Assembly: GCF_026262505.1 (NCBI RefSeq)
Contig: NC_067208.1
Span: 3,419,962 to 3,483,961 of the forward strand
Reading direction: 5' to 3'
DNA from: Trichomonas vaginalis G3
Lineage: Eukaryota > Parabasalia > Trichomonadida > Trichomonadidae
Length of the DNA: 64,000 nt
Position numbers and translations under genes: made by a program. The notes beneath the pieces were generated by a model that had not been told where the DNA came from, did not search any database, and worked only from the letters and a program-made list of their open reading frames with translations. How positions within the stretch are numbered: position 1 is the first letter of the stretch; each line of letters starts with the position of its first letter. Positions 1 through 49,300 of this stretch are shown here, one piece after another.

Positions 1-35
1 AAGTTAGTTTCAAAGGAGTGACTTGTTCGTTTCCT

Positions 36-1960: not shown

Positions 1961-1984
1961 TTTAAGTGAAGTTAAAAGCGGTTT

Positions 1985-3300: not shown

Positions 3301-3314
3301 TACTAAACATCAAC

Positions 3315-3347
3315 GGGGCTAGAAGGCACGAAGTGCCTGGAAGCCCC
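3315..3347. repeat. Terminal hairpin of viral element 1
   Basis: GGGGCT-AGA-AGGCAC-GAA-GTGCCT-GGA-AGCCCC: two perfect 6-bp stems separated by a 3/3 internal loop and closed by a 3-nt loop. It lies 6 bp inside the homopolymer tract at 3354-3394. The same motif, with small changes, occurs twice at the left end of the second element. Confidence 0.85.
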
Positions 3348-3351
3348 ACTA

Positions 3352-3353
<2 letters not shown>

Positions 3354-3394
<41 letters not shown>
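3354..3394. repeat. T41 homopolymer at the element boundary
   Basis: Forty-one consecutive T residues directly outside the terminal hairpin. The second element begins with the complementary arrangement, A22 at 29749-29770 directly before the hairpin motif. The homopolymer is therefore either part of the element terminus or a preferred insertion target. Its true length is uncertain because homopolymers are error-prone in sequencing. Confidence 0.8.
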
Positions 3395-18139: not shown

Positions 18140-18164
18140 NNNNNNNNNNNNNNNNNNNNNNNNN
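18140..18164. other. Assembly gap of 25 N
   Basis: Twenty-five N residues separate BEACH copy 1 from the 122-bp satellite. The length is a placeholder, so order and distance across it are not proven. Confidence 1.
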
Positions 18165-20985: not shown

Positions 20986-21032
20986 TCATTCGAGGAGCCC
21001 TCGAAAAGAACCTCACATCGACCTCTCTCTTT

Positions 21033-21255
21033 CCGGCATCTTTACCGAGCATAGACTGCTCGTTCGCAACTTTGTGTGCAATCTAAGAGATGATTGCGGT
21101 AAAGATGCCGGGAAGATTGACGCTGCAGCAGAGAATCACTACGGCTCTCTTTTACCGGCATCTTTACCGCATAGAAAACTGCTCGTTCGCAACTTTGTGT
21201 GTAATCTAAGAGATCATTGCGGTAAAGATGCCGGGAAGATTGATGCTGCAGCCCC
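21033..21255. repeat. Dimer of inverted-repeat units next to the satellite
   Basis: Two units of about 125 bp, each bounded by CCGGCATCTTTACCG and its reverse complement CGGTAAAGATGCCGG. Each spans GCTCGTTCGCAACTTTGTGT and AATCTAAGAGAT. The pairs form 15-bp stems with loops of about 60 bp. Confidence 0.8.
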
Positions 21256-21339
21256 AGGCCGCACTCAGATTTCATCCCGCTACACAATTGTTCATCCAAC
21301 AACTGTCATAGAGGTTGAAATTTTCGACCAGAAGTGAAA

Positions 21340-22770: not shown

Positions 22771-22776
22771 TATAAT

Positions 22777-23438: not shown

Positions 23439-23439
23439 T

Positions 23440-23931
23440 TTAACCACTCTTCACTTTGATCTAAAAGAGGAATGGCAGTTATTCGATAGCAAATAATGTA
23501 AAATGTAAATTATGATCCAAAAACGAGTGTTTTTCTATCAAACTTTTGACATTTTGCAAAATTGAAAGTATGGCAAAATGTCAATTCACCATTAACAACT
23601 TGTTATCTGGAGAATGATTTCAAATGTGTCACAAGTTGTTATTTTCGTCGTGAACAACGGCTGTTGAAACAAATCACAATCGCCAGTTATTAGTTCTTTA
23701 TAGACATATCCTCAAAACAATTGCCTTTTATAAGAGTTTTTCAAGCCAGAAGAACGATATCAATACATTATGGAATAAGTAATTAGTGTGGTTCTGGCCA
23801 TATTAATCATAATTTTTTGCAGAAATTATCAATGGTATCACATGCAAATCAAATAAAGAATTTAAGGATCAAAAACATGTAAATAAATAAAATGGTTATA
23901 TAATTTAATAATACAAACAAAGAAAATAATT
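23440..23931. other. Intergenic region
   Basis: AT-rich spacer between the truncated family member and the 3' end of the cyclase-like gene. It contains a GTTGTTAATGG-type short inverted repeat around 23590-23650 but no gene that I recognise. Confidence 0.5.
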
Positions 23932-29748: not shown

Positions 29749-29776
29749 AAAAAAAAAAAAAAAAAAAAAAGGTAGT

Positions 29777-29902
29777 GGGGCCTCCAGGCACTTCGTGCCC
29801 TCTAGCCCTGAAGATGTTTAGTATAATGAAGTTTTTTTTTTTTCTTTGGGATGGCCTTCCAGGCACTTCGTGCCCTCTAGCCCATAAAAAGTTTAGTATA
29901 AC
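29777..29902. repeat. Duplicated terminal motif of viral element 2
   Basis: Two copies about 76 bp apart (29777-29828 and 29853-29902). Each contains CCAGGCACTTCGTGCCCTCT, AGCCC and, after a variable base or two, GTTTAGTATAA. The core AGGCAC/GTGCC hairpin matches the one at 3315-3347 in element 1. Confidence 0.85.
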
Positions 29903-30111
29903 TTTGTCCGGACAAATAAGGGTCTATCGTCGCTACAGGAAAAGTTACAGGCGTTCCACGGAAGTATACTTTGAGAAGCCTTTTCCCCTTATAGAATGAG
30001 ATAGGACGGTTATTTTACAAAACTGACAACACTTTGACCGAGTCGTTTTTTGTGCTGAACAAAAAGTGTCATATAAACATCTGTCAAAAACCGTTTTTTA
30101 CTTCACTTAAA

Positions 30112-31919
30112 ATGCCACGTAAGCTACGTAAGAATATACGTAAGAGGAAGAGAGCATTGAAACATCCAATAGTAAAACTGACACCACAACAACAGTTGCA
30201 ACAACAAATGATGAATGACCCACTATGTTGCAACAAATGTCAAGCAACCCTATGCTTTTAAACCGAGTTATTGGTGCACAGAGTGGAGGTTTAAGAGCGG
30301 CACTTTTAGCGAAAATGGCAGGTTATGGTGGAGCTGCAGACGGAACAGCTTATAACCCTCAAAGTCAAATGAATTTGAGTTCACTTAAAAAATCATAACA
30401 GATGTCAAAAAGTCAAACATAGACATACAGAAACAAATAGTGAAAACGAAAAGAAACTAGAATATGACAGACAGACAAAGAAACTAAATGAGTTAAACGT
30501 AGAGAAAAAGAAGAAAGAAGAACAACTGAAAGAACTAAGTACAGAGGAATATGCGAAAAAAGTGTCAGAAAAAGCAGCAGAAGTAGCAAAAATGGAACAA
30601 GATGTTATAAATTTGAAAAACATACTACTCAATATAAAGTACTGAAAGATGAAGAAATAAAACAAAAAGCCCTGAAGACATATATGGATAGCGATGAGTA
30701 TAAAAAGAAGTTGAAGCAAATGTAAAGGCAGAAAAACTTTTACAGTTGCAAAACCAAACCGTACAGTATGAAAACTTAGCACAAGAAAGTAAAAATAACG
30801 ACGCAGCCATGCAAAAGGCAATGAAAAGCGCAGAATATATAAAAGCTAATAATGACTGGTTAGATGCCCAAGCCAACGCTAAAGCAGCCCAACTTATAGG
30901 GTCAATAAGGACAAAAATACAAGCGGATGAAGACAGTTCAAATGAAAGCTTTAATGAATGCTGACTTTAGAACGCCTTCGAAGCTCTTCATAGTAAGGTG
31001 AAACTAGTGAACGACTTCTCATCTGGAAAGAAACTGAAGTCTGAAGGTTTCGACAAAGAGTTAAGAGAAGTAGCACAAAATATGACGAAAATAACAGATG
31101 CAGCAACGAGACAGGCAGTTCAAAGTGCCTATGACGCCGTTAGAGCAACTGTTGTGGAAAGTCAAGAAAAAGAGTTACAACAGACCAAAACAGACCTAGT
31201 AAATGCTTTCTTAAAAACGAAAAGTCAGGTAGGACATTATGCTGCAGATGGAACATATGTGCCAGCTGGTGGAACTTATATGCCAGCAGATGAGGTACAA
31301 GAAACTCCACAGGAAGAAGTTCAGATACAACCAGACATGGAAGAAATAGTTCAGCAACAACAGCTAGAAGAGCCTGAAGGAAACGAACAAGTTCCTCCTT
31401 TGGAAACTACAGAAATAAATGACGCAAGACTGAAACATTGGGTAAAAGCTTTCCCATTCACAAAAGATATTGTTGGTAACATGGAAAGAAAACCAGAATG
31501 GCTACAAAAACATATATTTGGAAACGAGCTTATTCCATATGGACAAGCTCTGTTTGAAGAGCTTGAACCGGAAACTCAGGAAAGAGTCATGCAAACAATA
31601 CGCGAAGACTCAAATACAAACTATGACAAAATCTTTCTAGGATATAGGTTACCTGAGATGGGCGACCAGAGCCCAAAGGCAAAAAGGACATGGGAAATTT
31701 ACAACATACTAGGTGAACATGAGGCAAAGATGCAACAACTTGAAGCAGAGGGCAAGTTACCAAAAGCGACACCAAAGAAGAAGAGTAGAACAAAGTGAAA
31801 GTAGTGAAGAAGTAACTTCATCTAGTGAAAGTAGTGGCAATGAAGGAAAAAGAAGAGTTAAAAACTCAGTCAGGAAGAAAGTAAAGCTTGGTACGAGTGG
31901 GTTCTATTATGACAAATAA
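30112..31919 (+). pseudogene. Viral core-like coiled-coil protein, internally deleted and frame-broken
   Basis: Homologue of 36-1960. It begins MPRKLRKN with a Lys/Arg-rich N-terminus, a Gln-rich stretch, and the apolar GGLRAALLAKMAGYGG segment, then a long charged coiled coil. Compared with element 1 it lacks the Pro/Gln repeats and the following compact region: the sequence jumps from the GGTY block directly to MPADEV near 31280. After the jump comes an acidic Gln-rich part and a last globular region (about 31420-31770). A Ser/Glu plus Lys/Arg tail, reached by one more frame change near 31765, ends at 31919. Frame changes occur near 30220, 30400-30720, 30960 and 31765. A structural or DNA-packing virion role is inferred from position before the capsid gene and from composition. 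Confidence 0.55.
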
Positions 31920-31951
31920 ATCCAACTATTCTATATTTTTACCCATATGAA

Positions 31952-33473
31952 ATGTACGCCGCTCAGAATATAACGCCAACAGTTTTGGATGCCATGAACG
32001 GAAATGTTTCCGAATGGTATAACGAATGCGACAATGCCATTAGAAGGTCAGAAATAGTTCCTGGAACTTACGAATATACAACTGCTGTTTCTTATGGAAA
32101 CGTAGGTGAGTTTGGAGAAGGTTCTTCAACAACAGTAGATATTGCTTGCGACAGGTTTCATATTATTTCTATTGACAACTCATTCTTATACGTGGAACAA
32201 GACATTGAAATAAAACCTTCTGCCAAGTTGTCTGACAAGAAAGGTTGCAATGGAATTTTCTATGTCGGATACCAATATGCTCCAGAAGTTTTCATGGGAT
32301 ATAAGATATATTCTAACTCTGACTTAGTTCAAACAGTAACATGGGCAAACTATGAATGGTTCGCTTTGAGAAACTCAGTACAACCACAAGCTAGAGAACA
32401 AACAGACCAGTATGCAAATATTGAGAAAATAAGAAGACTTGACCCTAACGTTCCAGGAGTTTATGTTAACCTTTCTGGTTCAGATGACTGCTGCCACTAA
32501 AGTAAAACTGAAACTTAGAGTTCCTTTGTCATCTTTCCTCATCTTCAGGTTTTTAAGATACTTGCCAAACTGGGCAGGAAAAATTTCTATTGAACTTACT
32601 CCAAGCAAAAATAACTTAGTCATTGCACCAACACAAGACCCATTCACTCTTACAGACGTAAAGGGAACAAATCAAACGTCATTCGCCGAATTTTGCAAAG
32701 ACAAAGTTGACTTAGACTTTGGTTTCTCAAACTTCAACAATGAAGTAAACTATTATTTCAATGCTGCTGGAACTGCTTGGACCCAGTTAAGTTCACATGC
32801 GAACAGTTTGAATGCAAAGAGAATAGAAAGCAGACTTGCAGTCTATATGTTGGACCCAGATATTTCAAATGCTTTAGCTGCCAAATATATTGCAGTTCCA
32901 CTTATGTTCCCTATACACCAAATATCTGTCACAAAGACTTTGCAGGTGAAGTTGGAAACCAAAGTGCTGACCCAGGTGCAAGAACAGATATTGCTTTAAC
33001 AACTGCAATGAAACATGCAGATACTATGTTTGTACTGTTCAGACGAACTATAAATGACTATTCTTGTTTCTACAACCCGGTATTAAATATCATATAAACA
33101 TAGATGGCAAATATATATCCAAGAGAAGAATATTCTACAGTTGAGGATATTGAGGTCATACAACTTGACATTAGATGCTATGAACTTTAACAACAACTTC
33201 ACAACAACCATTAACCCTGAAATGCAAAGTTCTATTATGCCATATGTGAAAGTATGGACTCATACAGGAGGTCAAAAAACTCAATATACAAATGGAGACC
33301 GTTCAAACTTTTGGCTTGGCATTCCATTTGCTGACTCAGAAGACTTTATGGGTGGTATTTCAACTGTTGGTACAGTTCAAATACAATATACTGGTGACAG
33401 AGACGGTCCAGATGAATTGAAAGCAAAGAAGTTTACAAAACCAATAGCACTTTTCAGGGAAGATGCTCTTTGA
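31952..33473 (+). pseudogene. Double-jelly-roll major capsid protein
   Basis: About 500 residues starting MYAAQNITPTVLDAMNG. The first jelly-roll region is open to about 32480. After a frame change, the stretch containing LRVPLSSFL and NWAGKISIELTPSKN has the pattern (hydrophobic PL..., then G...I.L) seen in Polinton, Polinton-like virus and virophage capsid proteins, where the second strand pair begins. The C-terminal roll (33141-33473) follows two further frame changes near 32960 and 33100. Length and position next to the core-like gene fit. The fold assignment is by motif and context only. Confidence 0.65.
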
Positions 33474-33785
33474 AGATTCGTTCGATGAAACCTGCTGGGC
33501 TCCTCAGATTGGCATAACGACAGCTTCCATCGAGCAGATTTGGCAGCAGGTCAGTAAGTTGTTCTTGAACTGACTTCTCTCCGTCAAATATTGACAGTAC
33601 GCCAGTTTTTGACATAATATTGTAAGATAAACTTCCTTTAGAAATATCTGTAAGTTTTGTTGTTATTTTTTGTCAACGTCAAGAACTTTCACCATCTCGG
33701 TTATACCAACTTTCTTTGCTTTATGAAAATATTTAGGTTCAGCAAAGACTGCTATTCTATAACATTTTCCATTGTTTGTGTAAAG
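33474..33785 (-). pseudogene. Small minus-strand viral gene, frame-broken
   Basis: Reading right to left, a coding-like stretch (CYRIAVFAEPKYFHKAKKVG) runs from about 33780 to 33680. It continues in another frame through SILSIFDGEK-like sequence (GVLSIFDGEKSVQEQL) to 33474. It abuts the capsid stop tail to tail. Function unknown. It breaks the otherwise plus-strand run of structural genes. Confidence 0.4.
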
Positions 33786-33885
33786 AACTATCTGTCAATG
33801 TATTTGTATTGTTTGTGTGTGTAAACTTTGTTCTGCTTCAATTCGAAGAGATATCGAATACGTCCATCTTTTTATTCTAAGTAAA

Positions 33886-34384
33886 ATGTCATTTCCGAAA
33901 AATAGAAGCGTGAGTGTTTCAAAAGGTTTAATGGCGGTGGCAGATGTGAAGTTAAATTCACCAACTCAACAAACAGTCAAAGTGTTATTGTCAATGTCAA
34001 AGACAGAGATGTTGAAGTGGGGAAACCATACGAAGACGAAGATGGTATAGCAATTGTTCCTGTAAAAGAACAACCAACATATCCTGAAGTTAGCAGAGAC
34101 TTAAGTTCTGTTGCAGATATTCGAAATGACTACCAACAACTTAAAGACAACTTCAAACTCAGGAGAAGATTTGTCAGCTTTAGGTATAATGTTAAACTTG
34201 TGCGAACACAACCCTGTAAAAGTGAACTCATATGTCATTGCACCTCATGAAGTTTTGAAAGAACTATTGAAACTTTTGACAGAGGCAGACGATAATAAAC
34301 ATCAAAGAAATAGAACCCGACATTAGTTGCTGTGGTGTTTCATATAATGTCATTGACAAGAATATACGTTATGAAAGGAGGTGA
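33886..34384 (+). pseudogene. Small viral protein of unknown function, frame-broken
   Basis: Starts MSFPKNRSVSVSKG. After a frame change near 33985 it continues with VGKPYEDEDGIAIVPVKEQP and a helical part, then SGEDLSALGIML and HEVLKELLKLLTEAD in another frame. It ends near 34384. Composition suggests a soluble, acidic-middle protein of about 160 residues. No family recognised. Confidence 0.4.
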
Positions 34385-34469
34385 AACGTTGAACTTAAAG
34401 TATAGTTTCCCAGACGTCATAAAAATATTTGACGACACAAACATTTCATTAAAATTTTTTGCTAAGTAA
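34347..34469 (+). CDS. 40-residue viral small frame
   Basis: An intact short frame overlapping the end of the previous gene by about 38 bp (MSLTRIYVMKGGETLNLKYS at the start, ending FFAK). It could be an independent small gene, or the frame-shifted tail of the previous one. No family recognised. Confidence 0.3.
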   Translation: MSLTRIYVMKGGETLNLKYSFPDVIKIFDDTNISLKFFAK

Positions 34470-34471
34470 AA

Positions 34472-34656
34472 ATGTCAAAACTTTTTGAAAGATGTTTGAA
34501 GAAAAATAATATAGACTTATTTCATGTAAAGGACTTTACACACTTTTGAACGATATGAAAGACCCTGTTTTGTTTGTTCGTGTAGACAAAGGAAAGTTTC
34601 TATGTCTTTACAAAATATTGAACTTCTTAGACAGAGACTTCAAGAAACGCATGTGA
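34472..34656 (+). pseudogene. Small viral protein, one frame break
   Basis: Starts MSKLFERCLKKNNIDLF. One frame change near 34540 leads to NDMKDPVLFVRVDKGKFLCL and an end near 34656, about 60 residues. Function unknown. Spacing from the previous stop is 2 bp, as in compact viral genomes. Confidence 0.35.
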
Positions 34657-34707
34657 AAGTTAGATGAAGTTCTTCTCCACTTTCAGAAAAACTTTTAAAT
34701 ATATAAA

Positions 34708-34815
34708 ATGGCAGAAGACATAATGGTTTATACTATTACGACTAAAACCCTGAGTCATATAATTCTATAACAACAAACTTACAAAGTCTCAAGGACGATA
34801 TTGTAAACTAACTTT
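34708..34815 (+). pseudogene. Short viral frame, MAEDIMVY start
   Basis: Begins MAEDIMVYTITTK. After one frame change it reads through SITTNLQSLKDDIVN to a stop near 34812. About 34 residues; unknown. It may be a small gene or the detached N-terminus of the next. Confidence 0.25.
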
Positions 34816-34822
34816 AAACACA

Positions 34823-35499
34823 ATGACGACTAAGCCTGTTTTGCTCTTTTGACACCAGAAGACTTTATTGTTGTGAATGGTAAAAAATACTCCTTTGAAG
34901 ATACTTACTCAGATATACCACCAACAGGTTTTGTTGACTTATTTAATACTTTAAGGACGGGTGTAACATGTGCTGCAACTAGAGCAGGTTTCATTATGTT
35001 TGGATGTCCGACTGAGTTTAGCTATAAACATATGAGCTATAAATCAAAACTTATATCTGGTTTTACTACTACAACAGTTTCCTATAACAGGAAAAGGTGT
35101 CATACAAGGATGTCTATTCCATTGACATTAAGCACACCAATTTATATATTGTTTCAAACTTAGGTTCAAAGTGTTATTCGAATGTCGACAGAAACTATTA
35201 TGACCAAAAGATACTTATGCGTATAAACAATACTTTCTCTGCTGGTTTGCCTATTGTTCATTCGAATGCAGAATTTTCACTTAGTGAACTCAAACACATT
35301 GGCAAGTAATAACGTTACATTAGTTGACGCAAACTTTGTTCCTGTAAAACTTTTATGTCCTATGTATTTGTCAATGACGGCAGAAAGTTTCGAATTGGAA
35401 GATGCAACTGGTGAAAGTATTGTATTACAAGAACAACTTCAAACAACAAATAGCTCAAGAAAACAAATGCAACAAATGCAACAACAAAGTCAAGAATAA
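34823..35499 (+). pseudogene. Candidate penton / minor capsid protein
   Basis: About 220 residues in three frames. The first (34849-35090) contains FIVVNGKKYSFEDTYSDIPP and GFIMFGCPTEFS. The second (about 35097-35290) contains GSKCYSNVDRNYYDQ and HSNAEFSLSEL. The third ends with PVKLLCPMYLSMTAESFELE followed by a Gln-rich tail. The size, the position between capsid and helicase genes, and the CPMYL...AESFEL block suggest the single-jelly-roll penton found with double-jelly-roll capsids. No direct family match can be shown by eye. Confidence 0.4.
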
Positions 35500-35528
35500 A
35501 AAAAATATTTTTTTTTATTTTTATAAAA

Positions 35529-36763
35529 ATGTACAGAATAGATGTTTCAGATTTTTATGACTTCCAAGCATTCAGAAATATGTGTCCATTTCGAGACTAT
35601 AACAAAGCAGTCGAGATATTGAAACGTTTAGTCATTTATGTTGACTCTGCCCCAGAATGTTATGTCATGAAAGAATGGGATGTTGTCTTTAACAAACCTA
35701 AAGCACAATAGTTTCAGAACAAGAATGTAAACAGAAAACTTAAGAAAATAAAAGTTGTACAAGTTGGAATGAAGATGTTAGATGCTTGGGATATCTTATT
35801 GTCAAAGTTAGAAGATTTTTCAGTTCGAGGTATAAAGTTTTATACACCTTCTCCAAACTTCTATTCTATCTTCACTGGATATAAATATGAACAAGTAGAA
35901 TGGAAAGAAAATATTATAGAAGCTTGGTTAGACCATGTCAAAGAAATTATATGCAATGGAAACGAAAAGGTTTATGAGTATATCTTATGTTGGTTTTGCA
36001 AACATCTTACAACATCCAAGTGCTAAAAATGAAACTGCTCTCATTATATTGGAAAACAAGGAACTGGTAAGAACACATTCTTTACAGATATTTTGTGCAA
36101 ACTGTTAGAGGGCTATTCGAACCCGAATATGACAACTTAGAAAACATCTGGGCAAGTTTAACTCCTCAATAGAGAATATGAAACTTATAGTTTGCATGAC
36201 TTCAAAGTATAGATACAACAAAGTTTTAAACTCAGATGCTTTGAAGAGTCTTTATAACAGACAAAGTTGGAGTTGTTGAAAGAAAATATAAAGACCAAAG
36301 AGTTTGTTGAAAATGTTGCAAACTTCATTATGGTTTCAAACAATACTGTTCCGAATGAAGTTAGAAAGTTCTGACAGAAGATATGTAGTTGTCAGAACGT
36401 CAGAAGCTCATATGCAAGATACAGAATATTTTGACGACTTAGCAGAAAACTTTGACACTGACTTTTACAACCACTTGTTCTCATATTTCATGACATTAGA
36501 TATTTCTAATTCAATCCAAGACAAATTCCACATACCGAAGAGAGAGACAAACATTGTTAGAAGCAAACAAGAGTGTATATGAACTTTTTGTTTAGATGAA
36601 ACTGACTTTGAGTGTTTAGATGAAAGGTCATTGTACGATTCTATAATACATATTGTCAAGAATATGGTTATATGAGAGCTTCTAACGAACATTCTTGGCA
36701 ATATGTCAAAATCTTTTTAGATTTTCAGAAGGTGTATATACAAAGAAAATTTTTCTGAGTAAA
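35529..36763 (+). pseudogene. SF3 helicase, D5-like (viral replication protein)
   Basis: Starts MYRIDVSDFYDFQAF. After several frame changes it reaches a Walker A GKQGTGKNTF (about 36050-36080). A Walker B-like region (MKLIVC) lies near 36180. The sensor region with ANFIMVSNNTVP, SDRRYVVVRTS and the DIS...IPKRET block lies at 36300-36560. These are the signatures of the superfamily 3 helicase domain of poxvirus D5-like primase-helicases. The N-terminal part before Walker A is about 170 residues, too short for a confirmed primase domain. The gene is interrupted at about 35710, 36030, 36130 and 36340, and after 36580. D5-like virus genes are a known repeat class in trichomonads. Confidence 0.75.
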
Positions 36764-36798
36764 TTTTAAAAAAATATTTTTTTTATCCGATAGAAAAG

Positions 36799-37212
36799 AT
36801 GACGAAATTATCTCAGTAAACAAGTACATGTCAGGACTTAAAGAAGAACTAGACCCATTCACATATTTGAATGTTTACTTCTACCATTTTGAAAAGTCTA
36901 CATTCACAAAGTTTGGAACATCGAACCAGTTAAGTTTGCTATTGTGACTAAAAATGGTGCGAAATTTGAAGACTTAGACATAGAAGGTTCGTTAGCAGTC
37001 AAAGAAATTTTGACAGAAGGTTTCAAACCTTAAAGAAGGCAAAGCATACAAACTTGTTATACCTATGAACCAAAGAAGCAGACGACTATGATATTATGAG
37101 TCTAAGATAGTTGAAGTTCAAGGTAAATTGGGTAAAAAGATTTTAGAGTCTAAGCCAGTGTTTGCTCCTAAAGAGGAAGAGAACATTGGACATTGACCCA
37201 GAAATGTTCTAA
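36799..37212 (+). pseudogene. Small viral protein of unknown function, frame-broken
   Basis: Coding-like stretches ELDPFTYLNVYFYHFEKSTF, EGKAYKLVIPMN and GKLGKKILESKPVFAP in shifting frames, ending near 37212. About 135 residues. The mix of beta-prone segments gives no recognisable family. Confidence 0.35.
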
Positions 37213-37227
37213 AATAAAATTTTATTT

Positions 37228-37675
37228 TTACATGTCAAATTTCTTTTTCTCTGGAACTGGTTCAGGTTGCTTTCTTCTCTTCTTCTACTTTCTTTTCTTT
37301 TCTTTTCTTTTTCTTCTTTTCTGGTGGAGTTATGTCAAATTTCTCGAACATATTATGTAAAGTTCTTTGTCCTTTAATAGCTCTTCTATTCTGTTTCTAT
37401 TTCATCTTCAAGACAGCGCATGTGTCTTCTTTGCATTCTAAGAACTTTTGTTGGAGCTTCATCTTTCCAATCGGTGTCATCTCTGTCACAAAGTCTGTCA
37501 TTGACAAATTTTAAGACTGCTCTGCTTAATGTTTTATGGTTCTTGTCATATTCCCAGAAACAGAACTTTAGAACAAATTCACCTTTCTTGTTTACACTAT
37601 GTAAGATTTTATGGTCGACAGATGTTTTGCTGTCGAAAAGCTTTCTCGAATATAGATAGCGAAATCGCTAGACAT
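37228..37675 (-). pseudogene. Minus-strand viral protein with Lys-rich tail
   Basis: Read from an ATG at 37675: MSSDFAIYIRE, then in another frame EFVLKFCFWEYDKNHKTLSR and APTKVLRMQRRHMRCLEDEI. A long Lys/Glu tail follows and stops at 37228. About 150 residues; no family recognised. It converges with the preceding plus-strand gene. Confidence 0.4.
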
Positions 37676-37711
37676 TTTCTAAAAAGATAAATTTTAAATT
37701 TTTCTAAAAAT

Positions 37712-38594
37712 ATGTTAGAAAAAAAGTTTGCTGACATTGACAAAAAATTTGAGAATGTTTTTAAACAAGAACAAAGAGGAAGTTAGAAAATGCTCAGATA
37801 AAGCCTATACATGACAAGTTCTTATTTGCTCAGAATGGTATAAACAGGTCTAATTGCACCACCTGGGTCGGGTAAGACTTTCACTTATCTAAAATGGCTG
37901 CACAACAACAAAGAACTAGATGAAGAAGAACCCATTCTATGGATTAGTAGTATTTGTAGTACTTCTGGTCAATTTGACCAAACGTCAATTCGTTCAAAGA
38001 TATTATAAAGAAGTCTAAGTTAGTATGTATAAAGATCTGATTGTTAGATTGGATAAAGAAGTACCAAAAGAAGAGTTTTGAAGGTATAATGCTATAAATG
38101 AGTATGTAAATTCAAGTTTTAAAGACCCAAATGAGGAAATGCAGAGAATATTAGAGAAGAAACACTTCAGAAACAAACAGAAAGAGATAGAATACATTTC
38201 GAAGAAATTGCAATCTTACGATTGAAGACATACCCTCATAGTGTCTTCTTATCTTAGATGACTTTTGCTTCTCATCCTTTTGTTAAAGAACAGAGAACAA
38301 GACATGTGTCGAATTCTTAAAGAAGCTCAGACACTTTAACATCTCGTGTAATTGTGTACAGACGCAAAGAGTTAAGTAAGGATGTTAAAAGAATACTTAC
38401 TGACATTATACTTTTCCCCGGATTGTCCGAAGACGATTTCATGGAACTTAATGAAAGAGTCCATGGCAGGTAAGTTTGACAGAATATGAACTATGGAGAA
38501 GTACAAAGTCATACAAGACCCTCATACTTCTTTTCAGAATTCATATCTACGCAAACAAAGTTCAAATTGTAAAAAGTCAAGCTTGAAAAATTAA
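37712..38594 (+). pseudogene. A32-type (FtsK/HerA) genome-packaging ATPase
   Basis: Starts MLEKKFADIDKKFENVFKQ. Walker A APPGSGKTFTYLKWLHNNK lies near 37857-37915 and is preceded by a short beta strand, as in A32-like ATPases. A Walker B-like PHSVFL...DDF lies near 38230-38270, and an RVIVYRRKELSKDV plus TDIILFPGLSEDDF stretch follows. Frame changes occur about every 100 bp. The role in the family is pumping viral DNA into the capsid. Confidence comes from the Walker A context and from co-occurrence with the capsid gene. Confidence 0.6.
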
Positions 38595-39053
38595 ATGGTT
38601 TCATCTACCGCTGGCTTGTTTGAAGTTGTCAAAATACTCTGTTATTTTTTCCTTTCAAGTAGCGGTAAGTCTTCTTTGAATGTAAGTATTGTAGTCAACC
38701 TTCATATCATAGTGTGTTGAGGTAACGTATCTTGAACTATTTGTTTCACATCTTCATTTGGGGTCATTGAATATCGTAAGTTTTCGGGCGATAGAACCAA
38801 TTTTCTGTCAGATTTGTAAATCTTAGCAAGGTCGTAAAAGCTTTTGTTGTTTCTTCTGACTAAATGCAACATAACCAATCTCTGTCTTCTTCTTTCTCCA
38901 ACTCTTCAGTATAAATCATATACTTATAAGTTCTTTTCCGTTACCTTTTGGTACCGAACGTGGTATTCTTTTCTGAATGTTTTTGGTCTTTTGCTTCAAA
39001 GCTTGTTTTCTAGCTCCTTCACGTTCTTGTCTATGAATTTCATCTAACATCAT
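38591..39053 (-). pseudogene. Minus-strand basic viral protein, frame-broken
   Basis: From an ATG at 39053: MMLDEIHRQEREGARKQALK, followed by a Lys/Arg-rich segment. Frame-shifted remnants (SLFRRNNKS-like, then VDYNTYIQRRL and YFDNFKQASGR) end at 38591 against the ATPase gene. Composition suggests nucleic-acid binding. Unknown family. Confidence 0.35.
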
Positions 39054-39059
39054 GAAAAT

Positions 39060-40786
39060 ATAACAAGCGCGTAAATACGAGGTGAAGCCCACATTGCCAA
39101 CAGCATTTACAAAAGTCTATGTACATAACCAGCCCTCTCAAAACCGTTTGGCAAAATTTTACGATTTTTCGTACGGAATCCTCGACTCGTGGTTTTCCCG
39201 GTCGCAAACATATGAGGAAATTCTTCTAAAGAGTTCTTTTGTCTGTTGGTTTTCAAACCAATGATGTTGCTTGCTTTGTAGAACGAAGAGCATTCAAAAT
39301 ACTTTGCACTTTGGTAGCATATCGTCTCTTGACTGAACGAATGAGACGAAGTTGTTTGTTAAACTGAAACGCTACTCATATTCCTTCATTTATGGCTTCA
39401 TGAACGATAGCAGTTGTTGTGTTCTCTGATGTTGAATATCTGTCTTACATACAAAATAAAAAATAAATAAAAACGCTAAAAACTAAACTTATTTTTCTAT
39501 CTTAAGGAAATTCATATTTTCATAGAAAGTTTTGGCGATCTAAGTTTTTTAACGTACTCGCTAGTTGTTCTTTCACTGTTTTCATAGCGAGAATCTGCTT
39601 CTATCGAGTTTTACGGCAGAGGAAGCAATCTTATGCCATTATACTTCTATGATTTTTTGTGCTGAAATTCAGCGAAAAATACATATTTTTAGGGTAAGAA
39701 AGTTAGATCTTGAGACCTCTTTTTGCTACCTCTTTTTTTCACAGAGCGTTTACATGGTAAACGTTATTTTTACATGTATTTTTGTGCCAGCAACTTCGTC
39801 AAATATATTTTATAGTCTTTATCTATTCTCATCTACTTCAAACGTTTTCTTTACCTTTATGGGAGCACCATATATTTTCCTCAAACATTTTCAAGTAGTT
39901 CTGTTTCTGCCAGCTTCATATCATTAACTAACACAAATCGCTGACTCTATTGACTGTAACTGTCATATCTTTGAGTTATATTATATGTGCCTTCTCTATC
40001 TTATATCTTTTGTATTGAAGTCCTTCGGTTCTTGAACGATGTAAAGTAAGCCTTCACTGCAACGTTCGCCGTATGCGAATGAACCATGATGTTGATGAAG
40101 TTAATATGCCCAACAACTTGGTCTAACCATAACAAAACTATTGGTATAAGACTTTTTGTCGATGAGATATGCTGCAGTTCCATAGAATTTTACCGATATC
40201 ATAAGCTCAGGATTTTCTAGTCAAAATTTTCTTTTTGAAGTTGAAGGCAATTCAACGCCAGTCCCTTTGTTTTCTTATCCAGTATGGAGATAAAATGTCT
40301 GAAAAGAATATTTGTTTGTAATTTCTTTGAGTATGCTACGTTTTAAAATCAGCCTATTCTAACCAATTTGGTGATCATTGTCTATCCTTTTTAACTGTTT
40401 CAAAACTCATATGTTTGTCCGATATCTTTCTTTAAGTCTAGCATAGTCCGTTTCTCATACGTTCTATCTCTTGACGGAGTAGTTATACTGCTTCCTCCAT
40501 TGCTGGCTTTATTACATTTAGAAACATTGCGGGTTCATTTTTGCGTTTATATTCTGAAACCTTACTCTGCTAAAACAAACTAAAGGCGTCATATTGCTCT
40601 CTTTCATTCAAAGTTTGCTGTTTTTATTTGTTGTTCCATACTTTGCCTCTCTATCTTATCTCTTATTGCCATACACATTCAGCAAACTAACGAAAGCAAA
40701 GTTGTCGTAGGTCTTAAATTCTTCCAGATTTCTATATGTCAGAAACATTCTTATATACCAATGTCGCAATGCTTTGTCCTAACCAT
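39060..40786 (-). other. Unresolved viral remnants, mainly minus strand
   Basis: Coding-like patches on the minus strand are visible around 39390-39250 (AIVHEAINEG and FNKQLRLIRSVKRRYATKVQ), 39900-39770 (YGAPIKVKKTFEVDE) and 40180-40000. Others are at 40620-40430 (SEYKRKNEPAMFLNVIKPAM then a coiled coil). Frames change so often that no gene can be delimited. No integrase or DNA polymerase signature was found here, and no terminal hairpin motif. Confidence 0.4.
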
Positions 40787-40787
40787 G

Positions 40788-41930
40788 ATATATATATGTA
40801 AAGTGATAATCTGAGGATAATCTGAGGAGGAGTCTGAGGATTAGACCGAGGAGTAGTCTGAGGAGTTTGAGGATAATCTGAGTAGTCTGAGGATAATCTG
40901 AGGAGGAGTCTGAGGATTAGACCGAGGAGTAGTTTGAGTAGTCTGAGGATAATCTGAGGAGGAGTCTGAGGATTAGACCGAGGAGTAGTCTGAGGAGTTT
41001 GAGGATAATCTGAGGATAATCTGAGGAGTTTGAGGATAATCTGAGCATAATCTGAGGAGGAGTCTGAGGATTAGACTGAGGAGTTTGAGGAGTAGTCTGA
41101 GGATAATCTGAGCATAATCTGAGGAGGAGTCTGAGGATTAGACTGAGGAGTAGTTTGAGGATAATCTGAGGAGGAGTCTGCGGATAATCTGAGGAGTAGT
41201 TTCAGGAGTAGTCTGAGGACTAGTCTCAGGACTAGTTTGATGAGGAGGACTCTAAGGAGTAGTCTGAAGAGTAGTCTCAGGAGGAAGATCTGAGGAGGAG
41301 TCTTATGAGGAAGATCTGAGGAGTAGTCTGATGAGGAGGGGTCTAAGGAGTAGTCTGAGGATGATGAGTAATCTGATAAGGAGTAGTCTGAGGATGATCT
41401 GAGGATAACCTGATGACTAGTCTAGGAGTGGTCTAATAAAAATGTAAAATATTTTCAAAGAAAAAATTCTATGAATTTTATATTTTAATTCTTAGCATTA
41501 TACTGAATAAAATAAACATAAATATCAAAATTTGAAATTGAACACGCCAAAAAATTGATAATCCACATTCAATATTTTGTAAGTGACGTACTTTTTGAAT
41601 ACTCGCCATACGCCTTGGAGTTCTCAATTTTGAATTCGCCTTTATTTGGGCGACCTCAGAAAAATACGCCATTAAGAAAATATTGTATGAGATTTTAAAT
41701 TTGAACACGCTCTACCTTAAGGAATTAAATTTATTAAGATATATTTATATATAATAAACGATTACTTAAAAAAAGTATTTCATCGCTTATGTAAGTTTCA
41801 AAAAAATCACGAAAATAAAAAAATCAAGATTAAAATTTTATTTTTAATTTTTGAATTTCTCAAATGGCGAAATTTTTGGGCGAACAAAAAAATGTACGCC
41901 CGGTCAAATGGCGTGTTTAACGCATCCCTA
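40788..41930. mobile_element. hAT-like transposon A, left-truncated copy
   Basis: Right end CGCATCCCTA at 41921-41930, followed by the AAATAGAG target-site copy at 41931-41938. The left end is missing. The TCTGAGGA minisatellite occupies 40800-41436. Confidence 0.75.
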
Positions 41931-42082
41931 AAATAGAGTATGTATAATTGATGATATTATATCGATAAAGTCCTCTTTGTTTTTAATATTTTTCTTTCAA
42001 AAAAATTCAAATTTATAATTTTTTCATAGAAAATTTATTATTTTTACTTTAACTCTCTATCGTTGCGAGCGCGAACGCGCGA

Positions 42083-44941
42083 TAGGGTTGTACAAACTGG
42101 CACGCCTGCTGGCACACCTTTTTTGGCCAGCTGGCACGATTTTTTTAAAAAACACATTAAAAAAGTCACTTTTTGCCCCATCTAATGAGATTTTTTTTTA
42201 CAATTTTTTTCCCCTTATTTTTCAATTTAGATATGATTTTAAGCTCTCCAAATTGAAGTTTACCTGATGTTTCTTAGTTTTTATGATAATAAAATGTTGC
42301 AAAGTTGAGTTTGGATTCAATAAATTTAAGAAAATTTTATTTTACAATGAAATTATAAGAAAGGATGTTTTTATCCTATGTCAAAGAGAATACATTTGTA
42401 GATCCCGACTTTTGACATGGTTGAAAATTCCAAAAAAAAATTCAAAATTTAAAAAAAAAATTAAAAAATATAAATTTCATGTTAAAAAATGATTTTTGAA
42501 ATTTTTTTGGAAAAATAGAATTATAGATCCGTATTTTTCCCAAGTGAGCGGGGTATCTCCAATCCCAGCCCTATCGTCCTCCCAGTGTCAGTTTTCAATA
42601 TAAAATCCAAATTTTTTTTGAAAATAAAAATTTCGAGAAATTTTTCTAATTTTTTTTCTTTAATTTCAATAATTCAAAATAAATTTGGGAGTAAAAAGAC
42701 ACTATTTAATGAAATTCATATGAGTGAATGTAGATAAATACTCTCAAAACATACAATTTATCTATTTTTTCTTTATATTATCAACTAATTAGTGATAATT
42801 TTTTTGAATCAGATTTTTTTTTCATTAAAAACATAACATATAACACAACAATGATGCACACATACGTATCTACACATCAAAATATAAAGCTTGTTTTGGT
42901 CTGGGCATCCCAACCCAAAATTCTTAAAAAATTGAATAAAATTGAATACTTGGGGCTGGGATACCCATCCCAAAACCGAATTGAATTTTTTGAATTAAAG
43001 AATATATTTATGTATTTATAATATACATATGATGTCTATAAAAAATACTAAATTCTAAAAAAAATTCAATTTATTCAAAACGTATACTAAGTGATCACTT
43101 CATTAGTAGGATCAGCAATCCTACTAAATGGTGAGAACGCCACTAACTCAAAAGGGAGTCCTTGGAGCTCTTGATCTCTTGTCAGTAGAGTTCATAATGA
43201 GGCATGGCATCTACTGATTAGAGATCAGAGCAATCCTACCTTACCTTCAGGAGCTACAAAGCTCCTAATCGTTACGAGAGGGAGCCTTGGAGCTCCTGAA
43301 GCTCATCAGCAGAGGCTATTTACCATTTGGGCCTCTTCTGATGAAAGATGCGAAACACGTCTACGAACCAGGAGCTTCAAAGCTTCTAATCCTTACTAAA
43401 GGGAGCTTTGGAGCTCCTGAGTCTCCATCAACAGAGTCCCAGATGGTAAATGTCCTTTGCTGATGAAAGATGCGAAACACATCTACGAACCAGGAGCTCC
43501 AAAGCTCCTAATCCTTACGAAAGGGAGTTTTGGAGCTCCTGAAACTCCTTTTACTATAAAATAGGACAGTTTTCTTCTGAGGTTCTCATCAAATCTAAGA
43601 CTTCAGAAGAAAGCTGTCCTATCAATGTATACTTACACTCTCATGGACTACAAGTGTACAATTTTAAGGCAGAGATTATCCGAGGCCTCTCATCAAATGA
43701 GGGACCTCGGATAATCTCTACCTTAAGTAGTCAAATAACTTTTCTCACTATTTAGGAACAAAAGAACAAGAGTTGGAGTACTTTAAGGCAAGATTCTTCC
43801 GAAATCTCTCATCGAATGAGAGAATTCGGAAGGACCTTGCCAAATCCTTGAACGCCAATATCCTTGGAACTGAGCTAGAACCAGGGAGAAGTAGCATACT
43901 ATAGAGCACGATGGTAATCTCGGAAATGCTTATATCGCCTCAAGCACAATATTTAAGAAGTCTAACTCATATATACAAGAAGTCAGGCTGAATAGATATT
44001 GTGCATATGGTTTGCAGAACTCTCATGATATTTCAAATTCATGTTATCCTAAAAAGGTGACACTTTGGGTGTATCGTCCATCCCAGGGATGCAAAAATCA
44101 CATCACCTTGGATCTATAAATAGAATGTCATATTTTTATGTTTTATTGCTATTTTTACGAAATCAATAAAATATTTGTTAATTTGGCTGAGATTATAAAT
44201 AAAATCTTTCTAAATCTTGCAATTGATTGCTAAAATCTGTTTTATGTATTAATTGGCATTGAGATTCGTTATAAAAGAATGCGAATTATTTTGTATGAGT
44301 AAACGTATTTTGTAAAATTTCAAATTCTCTTCTCTCATTACTTACCTTAGATCTCTCGGCTTTTAGCTCTCAGATTTCGCTCATAGAACTCAGGTTTTAG
44401 TTATGTACTCATAGATGTATCATTACTGCCCGCAGATCTCTCATTACTACCTTACTAACCAGATCTTAACTCTCATTACTACCTTACTAACCAGATCTTA
44501 ACTCTCATTACTACCTTACTAACCAGATCTTAACTCTCATTACTACCTTACTAACCAGATCTTAACTCTCATTACTACCTTACTAACCAGATCTTAACTC
44601 TCATTACTACCTTACTAACCAGATCTTAACTCTCATTACTACCTTACTAACCAGATCTTAACTCTCATTACTACCTTACTAACCAGATCTTAACTCTCAT
44701 TACTACCTTACTAACCAGATCTTAACTCTCATTACTACCTTACTAACCAGATCTTAACTCTCATTACTACCTTACTAACCAGATCTTAACTCTCATTACT
44801 ACCTTACTAACCAGATCTTAACTCTCCGACCTCCACCCTTTCCACGCCACGAGGCCCGATTTTTGGCCACTTTTTTGATTTTGGCCGCGTGCCAGCTCCT
44901 GGCAGGCGGCCCGCAAAATTGTGCCAGTTTGTACAACCCTA
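42083..44941. mobile_element. hAT-like transposon B (copy 2, best preserved)
   Basis: 2859 bp with inverted ends TAGGGTTGTACAAACTGGCA / reverse complement, and ACGCGCGA on both sides. The interior is as in copy 1: inverted AGGAGCT repeats at 43150-43545, three hairpins at about 43559-43837, and the 32-bp array at 44442-44826. No transposase. Confidence 0.8.
44442..44826. repeat. 32-bp tandem repeat, 12 regular units
   Basis: Perfectly regular units of CATTACTACCTTACTAACCA plus GATCTTAACTCT, without spacers, close to the right end of transposon B. Confidence 0.95.
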
Positions 44942-45146
44942 ACGCGCGAACGTCAAAAGGTGCTCGGCGAGCGGGTCGCCATAATTATGGCTATCGTCGT
45001 GCATCTATAGGGGAAATAAGTTATAATACAAAATGATGCATTGTTGTATTCTATTAATCCGAAATTTTACAATTTACAAATATTTTCATAAAAAAAATTT
45101 AAAGCTTTCGAAATATTGATATTTCTATTTTCATTCCAAGTAAAGA

Positions 45147-46210
45147 ATGATTGAAATGATGATTGAAGTGATAATATATTCGCTTAGAATATTCATCAAT
45201 TCCGTATATTTCTCTCTATTTCTCACAAGGAATGGGAAGACTTCTTCGAATCATCAATCAAATACACAACATTCGAAAAGAAGCATCAAAAATTCGAATA
45301 TAGTTCACCAAATAGTTATTACATTTCTCTTTCTTTAGTTTGTGCAGTGCGTTTCACAGAAGGAACTGGCAAAAATCTCAAATTCCTCATTGATACAAGC
45401 TCATTTGACAAATGTATGCACAAGAGTGAAGAAGGTGGCTCTTTATACGTGAGTTGTTCTAAAGGTGAATGTGTTCAAGACAGAATCTGCAGCTTTGGCT
45501 CCAACACGGTCAATCCAGGTGCATATTGCTATATTGAAGTTTCAGATGAATTTCCAAATAAGAATTATCTCCTTGATTCAACCATTACTTCAAGTGGCCA
45601 AGAAAATCCAGATGAAAACGATAATATTTGTTTGTACAGTGGGGAAATAAATATGAAATCAATCAATATTTCAAACTCAAAACTTTATTACGATAGTATT
45701 TACAATGTTGTATATAGTTCTAACTCAAATGTAACGCTTTCAACATTTTCAAACAACACAACTACATTTGAAGATATTTATGAAATATATGTTACAGCAT
45801 TATCTGATTCACTTGAATTTAAAATTCTTTTTTGTAATTTCTTTGAAAATGAATGCAATTACTTTATTATCAGTTTTCATGATCTCTTTATCAATAATTG
45901 CAGTTTTAATAAAAATAATATTAATGAAAGATACTTTTCCACAGACTCCAAACAAATTATAGTTAAAGGATGTTATTTTGACATCTCAGATCCTATTAAA
46001 ATCGGAAACGTCATAATTACAGAAGAATTAGGTTCAATTTATCCAGAAAACTATCATTTGTCTTCAGGTTTATGTTTTGCAAAACTAAAACTAGAATTTC
46101 CAGAAGAAAAAAAGGCAGAAACAGAAGAAAAAGAAGAAATTAAAATTAACTTCAAAAGAAAAAATAAATTTAATATCTTCGTTTGTTTTGTTTTTATTTT
46201 TCCTAAATAA
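45147..46210 (+). CDS. Secreted/surface-type Cys-containing beta-helix-like protein
   Basis: The main frame is open from about 45188 to 46210. It has no ATG of its own near the start; the ATG at 45147 (MIEMMIEVIIYSLRI) is one frame off, and copy 1 has one extra A there that would join them. The protein shows an N-terminal block (SHKEWEDFF, SSPNSYYIS), a hydrophobic segment, and a Cys-rich block (KCMHKSEEGG, CVQDRICSFGSN). Many short repeats of the N-x-S/T-rich SINISNSKL type follow, typical of parallel beta-helices, then a Lys/Glu-rich tail with a final apolar segment. There are three loci in this window (see 22777 and 61139). Extracellular location is inferred from cysteines and sequons. Tail to tail with the BEACH gene, 174 bp apart. 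Confidence 0.6.
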
Positions 46211-46384
46211 ATTTTGATATAAACAACATCTTCTAATCAACAATAAAATTTTAACGAATTCATCCTTAAAGATGAATAATAAAAACAATAACCAGGAATT
46301 TGTAAAATAAATAGATTTAGTGAAACCATAAATAAACAAAAGAATAAAATATATACAAAATAATAAAGAATAAAATAATAAAAA

Positions 46385-49300
46385 TTAAAGGTCTAAATAT
46401 AATAAGTTGCCATTAGAATCAGATGCAAATAAACAGTTATGTTCTTCGTTATAAACAATGTTTGTCATCGTGAATTTCTTAGTAGAAATGATTTCAAGCA
46501 TCTGTGGAATTTCGATCAATGAGAAATGGCCATCCGAAAATGATGCAACAAGCATTGGAGATGTTGATGATTTGATACATGCAAGACATGACAATGTTGA
46601 TTCATATGAAAATGTCTTCAAAAGAATGGAGTTGAATGTGTAGCATCGTAATGTGCTTGTAAAACGACCATTAGTTGATGATTCGCTTGCAATGATGATG
46701 TAGCCGGCTGAAACAATCAACAAGTTCTTCAATGTATCATTACCTTCAACAATGAAATGACGCATGTAATGACCACTTGAAAGTTTAGTCATGATAACAG
46801 TACGTGACTTGTCAAGTGAAACAATGATGTTCAAGTTAGAACAAACATCAACATCAACTAATGATGTCAAATGTGGTTGAATTCGGTAAAGGAAACAGTT
46901 TTGTTGTGGTTTCTCAACATCCCAAACGGAAATAGATGAATCTTGCCAACGAGTGACAATCAAACCTTTCTTGTGGCTGCTTGTAACACCGGAGATCAAT
47001 GAGCTGTTCTGACGCTGTGAGTAAATGTAATGTGCTGAATTCGATTCAACTTTGAAGACATGAAATGTGGAATCCCATGGAGATGATGCAACAAATAAAC
47101 AACTTTCTTGGATGTATTCGAAACTACGACTTGTGATAACAAAGAAATTATGTTCTGTATCTGGCAATGTAACATATTTCTTGATTGTTGCAAGAGGGAC
47201 TTGTTTGATACTGTTGTCTTGAACTGAACTTCGCCATTTGGATGACAAAGGAATAGAAAGGAAATCACTTTGTGCGGTCAATATTGGAATGGAATTATTA
47301 GATTGACCGATGAAAACAACTGGTGATTTGAATTTCATAAGAATGTTCCAACAAAGTTTAGTACCTAAAAGCATAAGACGAGTGATAGACATCTGACGAG
47401 TGTAGATACGCTTAGGATGTGGATAATTGAAGATTTGGCGAGGAACAATACCTGAATTAGATGCGTAAATTTGGATTGTTTTGAGTTCATTTGGATTCTT
47501 AAGAACTTCTTTAGTGATTGATGATGGGTAACAGTATTTATGGAATGTGTTGTTAGCCAAGATGGCTTCTTTACCTGTCTGTTTGTAGCCGAAGATCAAA
47601 TCAATCCATAAATGCAAGTGTTCACTAACATATTTGGATTCCAATGCATTACGGTTGATTTGGATGAATTCAGCTGCTGATTTAGCCCATGGTGGTAATT
47701 CAACATCATTAACTTGTTTGCCATCTTGTGTACTGCCTAAATCGAATTTGTTCTGGTTAATCAACATCTCTGGAAGACTGAAAAACTGTGGAATAAGTTC
47801 ACGGAAGTCTGGTGCTGTAGATGTAATATTCTTCCAACAGAATGGAATAGATCGGAATGTTCGGTTTGGATTGTCGAACATGTTATCTTGTAACTCGATG
47901 TGGATACTTGTGTATGGTTCAACACGAACAAGGAAGTGGACAACATAGAAAGCAGTAGAATAATGGAATCGATACAAACATTTATCAACGGCATCATCAT
48001 CGTATTCGGCTAACAATTCTTGAAGATTTTCAAGACGTTGTTGATTGAATGCACCAACTGGTTTACTGAAATCGCGGTAGTTGTTAGGATCATTAAGATC
48101 GATACTTTCGCTTGTGTAGTTGCTCAAAACCCATGGGAAGATTGGATATTGACTTAAATCATTGAATGAACGACCTGAAAACAAATTAAGTTTCATCAAG
48201 TATTCGTAGTTAGACAACAAACCTTTCTGCCAGTCGTATGTAGATTTGTCGATCCACTCACGGATGTTGTTCTTGTACTGAAGGATTTCGATATCATGAA
48301 GTTTGGAGTGCTTCAAGTGTTTAAGAACTTTGTTCCTGTCGCCTTTAGGAAAATAGATGAAGACTGATTTGTTGTTCTTCATGAAGAACTCAAGACCGGA
48401 ATCAATGTGCAAATAAGATCTGTGTAAAACCATCTTAAGATCTGAGAGTTTGATTGTAACTGATTTCTTGTTGTCATCGTTGAAACTAAGTTCGTTCTTA
48501 TTAACATAAAATGTACCTTCATATGTTTTCTTGATTGTGATCATTTGTGCTGTTGTGAAGAATGAGAAATCACGGTGTTCTGTTGTTTCTGTAGTTTCTT
48601 CATCTTCTTGTTGTGAAACTTCTTCGTCTTCTGCAATAATGTTGATCTTGTTGGCGTCAAGCCATCGTTCGTACTTAGATTGCGCAGCTTCAGCAGTAGT
48701 GCCATCACGCATCAATGATGCTTTCATGTGTATATCAAATTTAAGATTAGGACGCATGAAAATTTGTCGATATTGGTCATCAAGTTCTTTAGAAACTTTC
48801 CAATGTTTGATTTCGCCTGTAGTAGACCATGGACCACCATTAGATTTCAAGTCTTTGAAAAGATTTGCGTGTGATTTCATGCATGAAATCGAATGTGAAA
48901 TAATTTGTTGTTTGAATTCTTCTTTCTTACGCAAAACATTTTTAAGAACATTGTCTGACAAAAAGTGTGGTGTTTGAACAATGATTTCTCGTGTTTTCTT
49001 AGACTTCTGGTAGACTTGATCTAAATATGTCTGTTTCGAAATATCTAATTTGTTGTCTTCAAGTGTTTGCTCTAAATTGAAAATAATATCTTTTGTGCTT
49101 TCAAAGATTTTGCACATAATATCGGAATCTTCCAAAATGTTGTGAACTTCAAGTGGTTGACCATTTAAAATAACTTTGGAGATGATTGACTTGCATCCAA
49201 TAAGTAAATCATTAACTTGTTTACGGTACGATGCATCCTTTTGGTATGTTCGGATAGCACAAATACTGCAATATGAGAAAATTTCGAAGTTAGTTTCTGT

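What the first reader, a model, noticed from the sequence alone, without database searches (positions are those of the whole stretch)
29749..40786. Integrated double-jelly-roll DNA virus in a trichomonad-type genome
Capsid-like (31952), candidate penton (34823), SF3/D5-like helicase (35529) and A32-type ATPase (37712) lie within 7 kb, together with a core-like coiled-coil protein and several unknown small genes. No DNA polymerase B or integrase signature is visible. This set fits Polinton-like viruses or virophages rather than classical Mavericks. The unknown genes and the mixed strand layout may define a separate lineage.
Basis: partly seen in the sequence, partly recalled or inferred. Interest (0 to 1): 0.85.

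Follow-up and report, generated by a model that had tools for sequence, protein, structure and literature searches.

The report
Broken copy of Trichomonas Maverick virus
This stretch is one damaged, cut-off copy of a virus-like element (Maverick/Polinton) that occurs many times in the genome of the parasite Trichomonas vaginalis and whose shell protein was already published in 2023, so it is real but largely ordinary.

Summary

The window copy is truncated and broken. The missing integrase is an artefact: the element is cut inside a gene at about 40784, against a duplicated 13.4-kb host segment. Two copies followed to both ends are about 22 and 24 kb, have terminal inverted repeats and probable 5-bp target duplications, and carry an rve-type integrase and a phage-like fibre. 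I saw no room for PolB in either. So the element pairs Polinton-type integration with a helicase-only replication module.

The T. vaginalis Maverick capsid was published in 2023 (PMC10120064); a primase-bearing Maverick variant was catalogued in 2021 (PMC7845603). Added here: among a few open copies, capsid, penton, helicase and ATPase show fewer nonsynonymous than synonymous differences per site (pN/pS 0-0.21). Whether the PolB-less subclass is a separate lineage stays open; the genome search for PolB did not complete.

The parts
29749..29976 (.). Left terminus of the element: poly-A then GGTAGTGGGGCCTCCAGGCACTTCGTGCC; matches the terminal inverted repeat of other copies
   Evidence: same motif, inverted, at both ends of two copies; inverted copy at 3298-3375 in the window; L037:6956-7038 and 7081-7229 match 29976-29894 and 29894-29743 inverted
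30052..31913 (+). DUF4106 coiled-coil protein gene and the part behind it, with internal deletions relative to other copies
   Evidence: PF13388 1.2e-63 for 30998-31798; tblastn 30052-31420 and 31280-31913; jumps in the alignments with L033-L036
31952..33473 (+). major capsid protein (double jelly-roll), frames broken
   Evidence: 40 of 40 scored genomic places, the window included, match at 97-100%, 8 of them partly; tblastn; fold of the 99%-identical database protein P0001
33723..34463 (+). 247-aa protein of unknown function, remnant
   Evidence: tblastn 1.4e-57; no Pfam match over cut-off, no PHROG match
34708..35499 (+). penton (minor capsid) protein, remnant
   Evidence: tblastn 6.7e-83 for 34708-35442, open piece to 35499; fold of P0121 matches mavirus and adenovirus penton proteins
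35529..36755 (+). SF3 (D5/P4-like) helicase, broken
   Evidence: tblastn 3.4e-132; open homologue L014:2027-3262: DUF5906 7.9e-24, VapE-like 1.4e-11, Pox_D5 1.6e-4, PHROG DNA primase 1.6e-30, PDB chain named Primase 2.3e-18
36810..37202 (+). DUF4108 protein, remnant
   Evidence: PF13390 1.7e-65 for the open homologue; tblastn 9.7e-41
37322..37675 (-). 149-aa protein of unknown function, remnant
   Evidence: tblastn 1.2e-39
37611..38583 (+). A32-type packaging ATPase, hit in three frames
   Evidence: tblastn; Pox_A32 8.8e-7, 29.1 bits against cut-off 22.8 for the open homologue; no clear PDB match
38613..39515 (-). KilA-N domain protein, broken
   Evidence: tblastn; PF04383 5.7e-28 for the open homologue
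40425..40784 (-). DUF3839 gene fragment, cut at 40784: the truncation point of the element
   Evidence: tblastn 40761-40431 covers residues 134-239 of 312; DNA match 40425-40784 = L015:7617-7961, inside the 312-aa frame L015:7400-8338
40787..54216 (.). duplicated host segment abutting the truncated element (97.9% identical to 4726-18139)
   Evidence: sequence around the junction
1..3394 (-). second, inverted fragment of the same element family (DUF4106 region and left terminus)
   Evidence: DUF4106 2.3e-233 for 36-1379

Best explanation
It is a truncated, decayed copy of a T. vaginalis Maverick/Polinton, of a subclass that carries an SF3 helicase and, where I could follow it to both ends, no family-B polymerase. 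Complete relatives probably work as integrating DNA viruses. The rve-type integrase inserts the linear genome by its terminal inverted repeats, leaving a 5-bp duplication. The SF3 helicase unwinds it while a polymerase of the host, or of PolB-bearing Mavericks in the same cell, copies it. The A32 ATPase pumps the DNA into an icosahedral shell of double-jelly-roll capsomers with pentons at the vertices. A phage-type fibre and a DNA methyltransferase are accessories. Shown: gene content, predicted folds, repeats, many copies, fewer nonsynonymous than synonymous differences per site. Inferred: replication, packaging, particles and infection. The window copy lost its right part at the edge of a host segmental duplication and cannot act by itself.
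For: Genome identity: G000 contigs C1, C2 and C4 have the lengths of the longest contigs of proteins that NCBI names T. vaginalis G3; for C6, which holds the window, the lengths differ slightly (20,316,152 here, 20,331,443 for P0002). Capsid fold. Penton fold. Helicase, ATPase, KilA-N. Integrase: rve 33.2 bits in the C1 copy (cut-off 32.6) and 32.4 bits in the C4 copy. Terminal repeats: 56 bp at 100% (C4); 56 bp and 83 bp at 98% (C1). Flanks compatible with duplications GCACA and ATTAT. Truncation. Distinct open copies: pN/pS capsid 0.21 (6 pairs), penton 0.00 (3), helicase 0.12 (3), ATPase 0.10 (6). Literature: PMC10120064, PMC7845603.
Against: No particle, packaged DNA or infection has been seen by me. 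The integrase matched nothing useful in PHROGs or PDB. No capsid protease was recognised. The 247-aa gene shows pN/pS 0.87 (3 pairs). The pN/pS values rest on 3-6 non-independent pairs; for the capsid the raw totals are 35 synonymous and 27 nonsynonymous differences. PMC7845603 reports only 25 of 38,656 TE frames above its RNA-Seq threshold, against a currently active virus. Elements are mosaic: to the right of about 38600 the window copy falls to 82-88% identity with several copies, and L033 has its terminus about 1.3 kb further out.
Confidence: 0.85

Rival explanations
1. A self-synthesising transposon that keeps the capsid genes only as passengers and spreads within the genome without particles.
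For: Many copies at 97-100% identity; many broken copies, capsid open in 4 of 8 copies examined; hardly any expression in PMC7845603.
Against: Capsid and penton pN/pS of 0.21 and 0.00 among open copies, and capsid relatives at 42-55% identity that cover nearly the whole protein in public sequence collections, so the genes have been kept.
Confidence: 0.25
2. A virophage, i.e. a satellite that needs a giant virus in the same cell.
For: Structural relatives of penton and capsid include mavirus and Sputnik.
Against: No cysteine protease recognised; the capsid profile finds no virophage capsid among PDB sequences at E up to 5; no giant virus of trichomonads is known to me (recalled).
Confidence: 0.05
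3. A classical PolB Maverick that lost PolB only in the copies examined.
For: PolB-bearing Mavericks exist in this species (1,491 annotated PolB frames, PMC7845603); my survey covers two copies.
Against: Behind the capsid of these two copies no frame exceeds 483 codons and no stretch without a frame of 120 codons exceeds about 1.6 kb within a locus, or about 1.8 kb across two adjoining loci; in front of it lies the DUF4106 gene.
Confidence: 0.15

Closest known systems
Maverick/Polinton elements of Trichomonas vaginalis, including the catalogued Tv1.6 with a DNA primase domain protein (PMC7845603, passages and section 8)
   Same: host, high copy number, integrase, KilA-N, ATPase, capsid-like proteins, primase/helicase-type protein
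   Different: no Tv1.6 sequence was at hand to compare
Metamonada group of capsid proteins (Bellas et al. 2023, PMC10120064, passages and section 9)
   Same: capsid: NCBI names 98%-identical fragments 'DUF4106 family', the name that paper gives the T. vaginalis capsid
   Different: by Pfam the DUF4106 domain lies in the neighbouring coiled-coil protein, not in the capsid
Tlr1 of Tetrahymena (PMC4642659, passages)
   Same: rve integrase, ATPase and both capsid proteins without a DNA polymerase
   Different: Tlr1 has a PIF1-like SF1 helicase, here SF3
Polinton-like viruses (Yutin 2015, PMC4642659, passages)
   Same: capsid, penton and ATPase core; SF3 helicase in several; no protease recognised
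   Different: rve integrase present, which only one of their PLVs has
Mavirus virophage
   Same: penton and capsid folds; rve integrase (passages)
   Different: mavirus has PolB and protease (passages); no sequence similarity of the capsid found

Membership tests
Maverick/Polinton (strict) | rve-type integrase | tested here: met
   rve 33.2 bits, over the cut-off of 32.6, in the C1 copy and 32.4 bits, E 1.1e-7, in the C4 copy; absent from the truncated window copy
[quoted passage not shown]
   no room seen in 2 of 2 copies followed to both ends and no Pfam hit among the frames scanned; the direct PF03175 genome search did not complete (17 tries)
Maverick/Polinton (strict) | terminal inverted repeats | tested here: met
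   2 of 2 copies
Maverick/Polinton (strict) | 5-6 bp target site duplication | tested here: inconclusive
   GCACA and ATTAT read by eye in 2 of 2 copies; the adjoining poly-A/T runs leave the exact border open
Maverick/Polinton (strict) | adenain-like cysteine protease | tested here: inconclusive
   no match among frames scanned; a diverged one is not excluded
Polinton-like virus | capsid + penton + packaging ATPase | tested here: met
Polinton-like virus | no rve integrase (one exception in Yutin 2015) | tested here: not met
Virophage (Maveriviricetes) | capsid recognised by virophage capsid profiles | tested here: inconclusive
   those profiles were not at hand; profile A1 against PDB sequences finds no virophage capsid at E up to 5
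Virophage (Maveriviricetes) | dependence on a giant virus | not testable with these tools
   none
Maverick Tv1.6 subclass of T. vaginalis | carries a DNA primase domain protein | tested here: inconclusive
   the helicase matches phage primase families (the last below its cut-off), but no Tv1.6 sequence was at hand

The most novel reading that the evidence does not exclude
T. vaginalis holds two separately spreading virus lineages: PolB Mavericks and a helicase-only, rve-integrating lineage that borrows its polymerase, perhaps from the PolB Mavericks, as a kind of satellite, and whose capsid genes are under purifying selection because it still passes through particles.
Probability: 0.3. Interest if true: 0.55.

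Novelty: already known. Interest (0 to 1): 0.25.

Why it matters
It settles that this window copy is a fossil of a known element and explains why the integrase looked absent. What remains useful is a testable point. Complete relatives pair Polinton-type integration with a helicase and, in the two followed, no polymerase, and their capsid and penton genes show low pN/pS. That speaks for passage through particles in the protist genome that PMC10120064 found densest in capsid genes, which bears on the virus-or-transposon question.

Tried and rejected
Right end at 40784 taken as natural: rejected, because the query itself ended there; searches show other copies running on. Sequence searches of the capsid in Pfam, PHROGs, NCBIfam and PDB gave nothing, likewise the penton profile in PDB; only folds identify them. 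A scan of IMG/VR with the capsid alignment found 25 pattern matches, none confirmed as a relative; the tool says that close records may be left out. In some searches no absence is read as evidence. rve matches elsewhere in the genome (150 of 3,015 candidates scored) were not linked to this family. ARAGORN and Rfam at gathering score found nothing in the window. Terminal repeat between the two ends of the window copy: none of note, explained by the truncation. The pN/pS counted some copies twice through overlapping loci; one search repeats it on distinct copies and replaces it. No trees of helicase or ATPase were built. I found no paper that treats the helicase-bearing T. vaginalis elements as a lineage of their own among the listings (open-licence PMC papers only, of which I saw passages or sections of seven); Pritham 2007 was not read.

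Full report
Where the window lies. The window is G000:C6:3419962-3483961 of a 180.9-Mb genome in 86 contigs. The lengths of C1, C2 and C4 equal the longest contigs of proteins that NCBI names Trichomonas vaginalis G3. C6 differs slightly (20,316,152 against 20,331,443).

What is there. tblastn of open frames from other genomic copies places, in order, DUF4106, capsid, a 247-aa protein, penton, SF3 helicase, DUF4108, a 149-aa protein (-), A32 ATPase, KilA-N (-) and a cut DUF3839 gene (-) between 30052 and 40784. Capsid, helicase and ATPase are broken into pieces. Against one other copy the capsid DNA shows 10 mismatches and 8 gap openings; so many indels for so few substitutions may reflect decay or read errors, which I could not tell apart. 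The capsid DNA matched in 40 of 40 scored genomic places, the window included, 32 of them over nearly the whole query, at 97-100% identity; 1,917 candidates came up in the first look, so the count is a lower bound.

Enzymes. The 411-aa helicase of an open copy matches DUF5906 (7.9e-24), VapE-like (1.4e-11) and Pox_D5 (1.6e-4), phage DNA primases, a PDB primase (2.3e-18; phage NrS-1, name recalled) and 438 of 50,697 phage records, at 25-26% identity in the ten listed. The ATPase matches Pox_A32 above its cut-off, the KilA-N protein PF04383 at 5.7e-28. The ATPase had no clear PDB match.

Boundaries and truncation. The left terminus in the window (poly-A, then GGTAGTGGGGC...) stands inverted at both ends of copies on C1 and C4. 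The terminal repeat is 56 bp at 100% in the C4 copy; in the C1 copy 56 bp and a further 83 bp, each at 98%. Flanks fit 5-bp duplications (GCACA; ATTAT), read by eye. By coordinates the copies are about 22.3 and 23.8 kb long. In the window the element stops inside the DUF3839 gene (residues 134-239 of 312 matched), directly against a host segment that repeats 4726-18139 at 97.9%. Beyond that point the two copies have DUF7777 proteins, an rve-type integrase (33.2 bits on C1, over the cut-off of 32.6; 32.4 bits on C4) and a protein with a phage baseplate/fibre C-terminal domain (Gp10_C 9.8e-16 and 2.3e-25). The C4 copy also has a methyltransferase (PHROG 5.2e-15), much of which is missing from the C1 copy. 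Integrase, fibre, DUF7777 proteins and methyltransferase gave no tblastn match in the window. So 'no integrase signature' is true of the window and false of the element.

Polymerase. Behind the capsid of these two copies no frame is longer than 483 codons. No stretch without a frame of 120 codons is longer than about 1.6 kb within a locus, or about 1.8 kb across two adjoining loci. In front of the capsid lies the DUF4106 gene (707-aa frame in L035). I see no room for a PolB. The direct PolB search of the genome was asked seventeen times and never answered, so the relation to PolB-bearing Mavericks is open.

Selection. On distinct copies (which replaces): capsid open in 4 of 8 copies, 6 pairs, pN/pS 0.21 (35 synonymous, 27 nonsynonymous differences in all); penton open in 5 of 11, 3 pairs of equal length, 0.00 (10 and 0); helicase 3 of 11, 3 pairs, 0.12; ATPase 4 of 11, 6 pairs, 0.10; DUF4108 9 of 11, 36 pairs, 0.23; 247-aa gene 3 of 11, 3 pairs, 0.87; KilA-N open in 1 of 11. 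Four of the 11 loci (L022-L024, L026) are short and hold only part of these genes. Pairs are not independent and only open frames were used.

What is known. PMC10120064 (passages; section 9) reports 2,224 and 4,841 capsid copies in two T. vaginalis assemblies, a double-jelly-roll prediction and a Metamonada capsid group. PMC7845603 (passages; section 8) lists for T. vaginalis Mavericks 3,551 integrase, 1,491 PolB, 2,716 'Mav1.6 DNA primase domain', 3,183 KilA-N, 2,485 ATPase and several capsid-like frames. The present element fits these lists. PMC4642659 (passages) defines Polintons by PolB plus rve integrase and PLVs by capsid, penton and ATPase without protease; PMC9952930 (passages) gives the virophage markers. 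On my evidence the element meets none of these definitions in full: it is a mosaic of Polinton-type integration and PLV-type replication.

Verdict. The element is a broken, truncated member of an already described T. vaginalis Maverick population; what is left to learn is whether the PolB-less subclass is a coherent lineage and how it lives.

Noticed in passing
4726-18139 and 40787-54216: 13.4-kb host segment (BEACH-domain gene 46385-54703 and its broken twin) duplicated at 97.9%; the copies are about 36 kb apart, and L009 upstream repeats 20646-24186 at 99%.
   Followed up: partly
18098-21073: 122-bp satellite-like array of about 23 copies, also upstream of the window in L017.
   Followed up: no
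8368-8750 and 44438-44826; 55207-55694: 32-bp and 120-bp tandem arrays; the 32-bp array is cleaner in the second duplicate.
   Followed up: no
23932-28578: 1548-aa protein with an adenylate/guanylate cyclase domain, presumably one of the transmembrane cyclase family of T. vaginalis (PMC2914791, seen only in the listing).
   Followed up: no
L038:3997-5406 and L037:3819-5111: Proteins with a phage baseplate/tail-fibre C-terminal domain (Gp10_C) in a protist element: candidate attachment protein; 86 phage records match part of the L038 protein, none over 80% of it.
   Followed up: partly
P0001-P0003 and window 30998-31798: NCBI names capsid fragments 'DUF4106 family', yet the Pfam DUF4106 model matches the neighbouring coiled-coil protein and not the capsid; the name may mislead.
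   Followed up: partly
P0225: A T. vaginalis protein named 'P270 surface immunogen-like' shares 98% identity with 30% of the element's helicase, so it may be an annotation that runs across an element.
   Followed up: no
L033:730 and about 2000: One copy has its terminus about 1.3 kb further out with other frames behind it, suggesting exchange of left ends between elements.
   Followed up: no
L014:210-953 and its copies (window 33723-34463): pN/pS 0.87 over 3 pairs of open copies, unlike the neighbouring genes; may reflect paired frame shifts.
   Followed up: no
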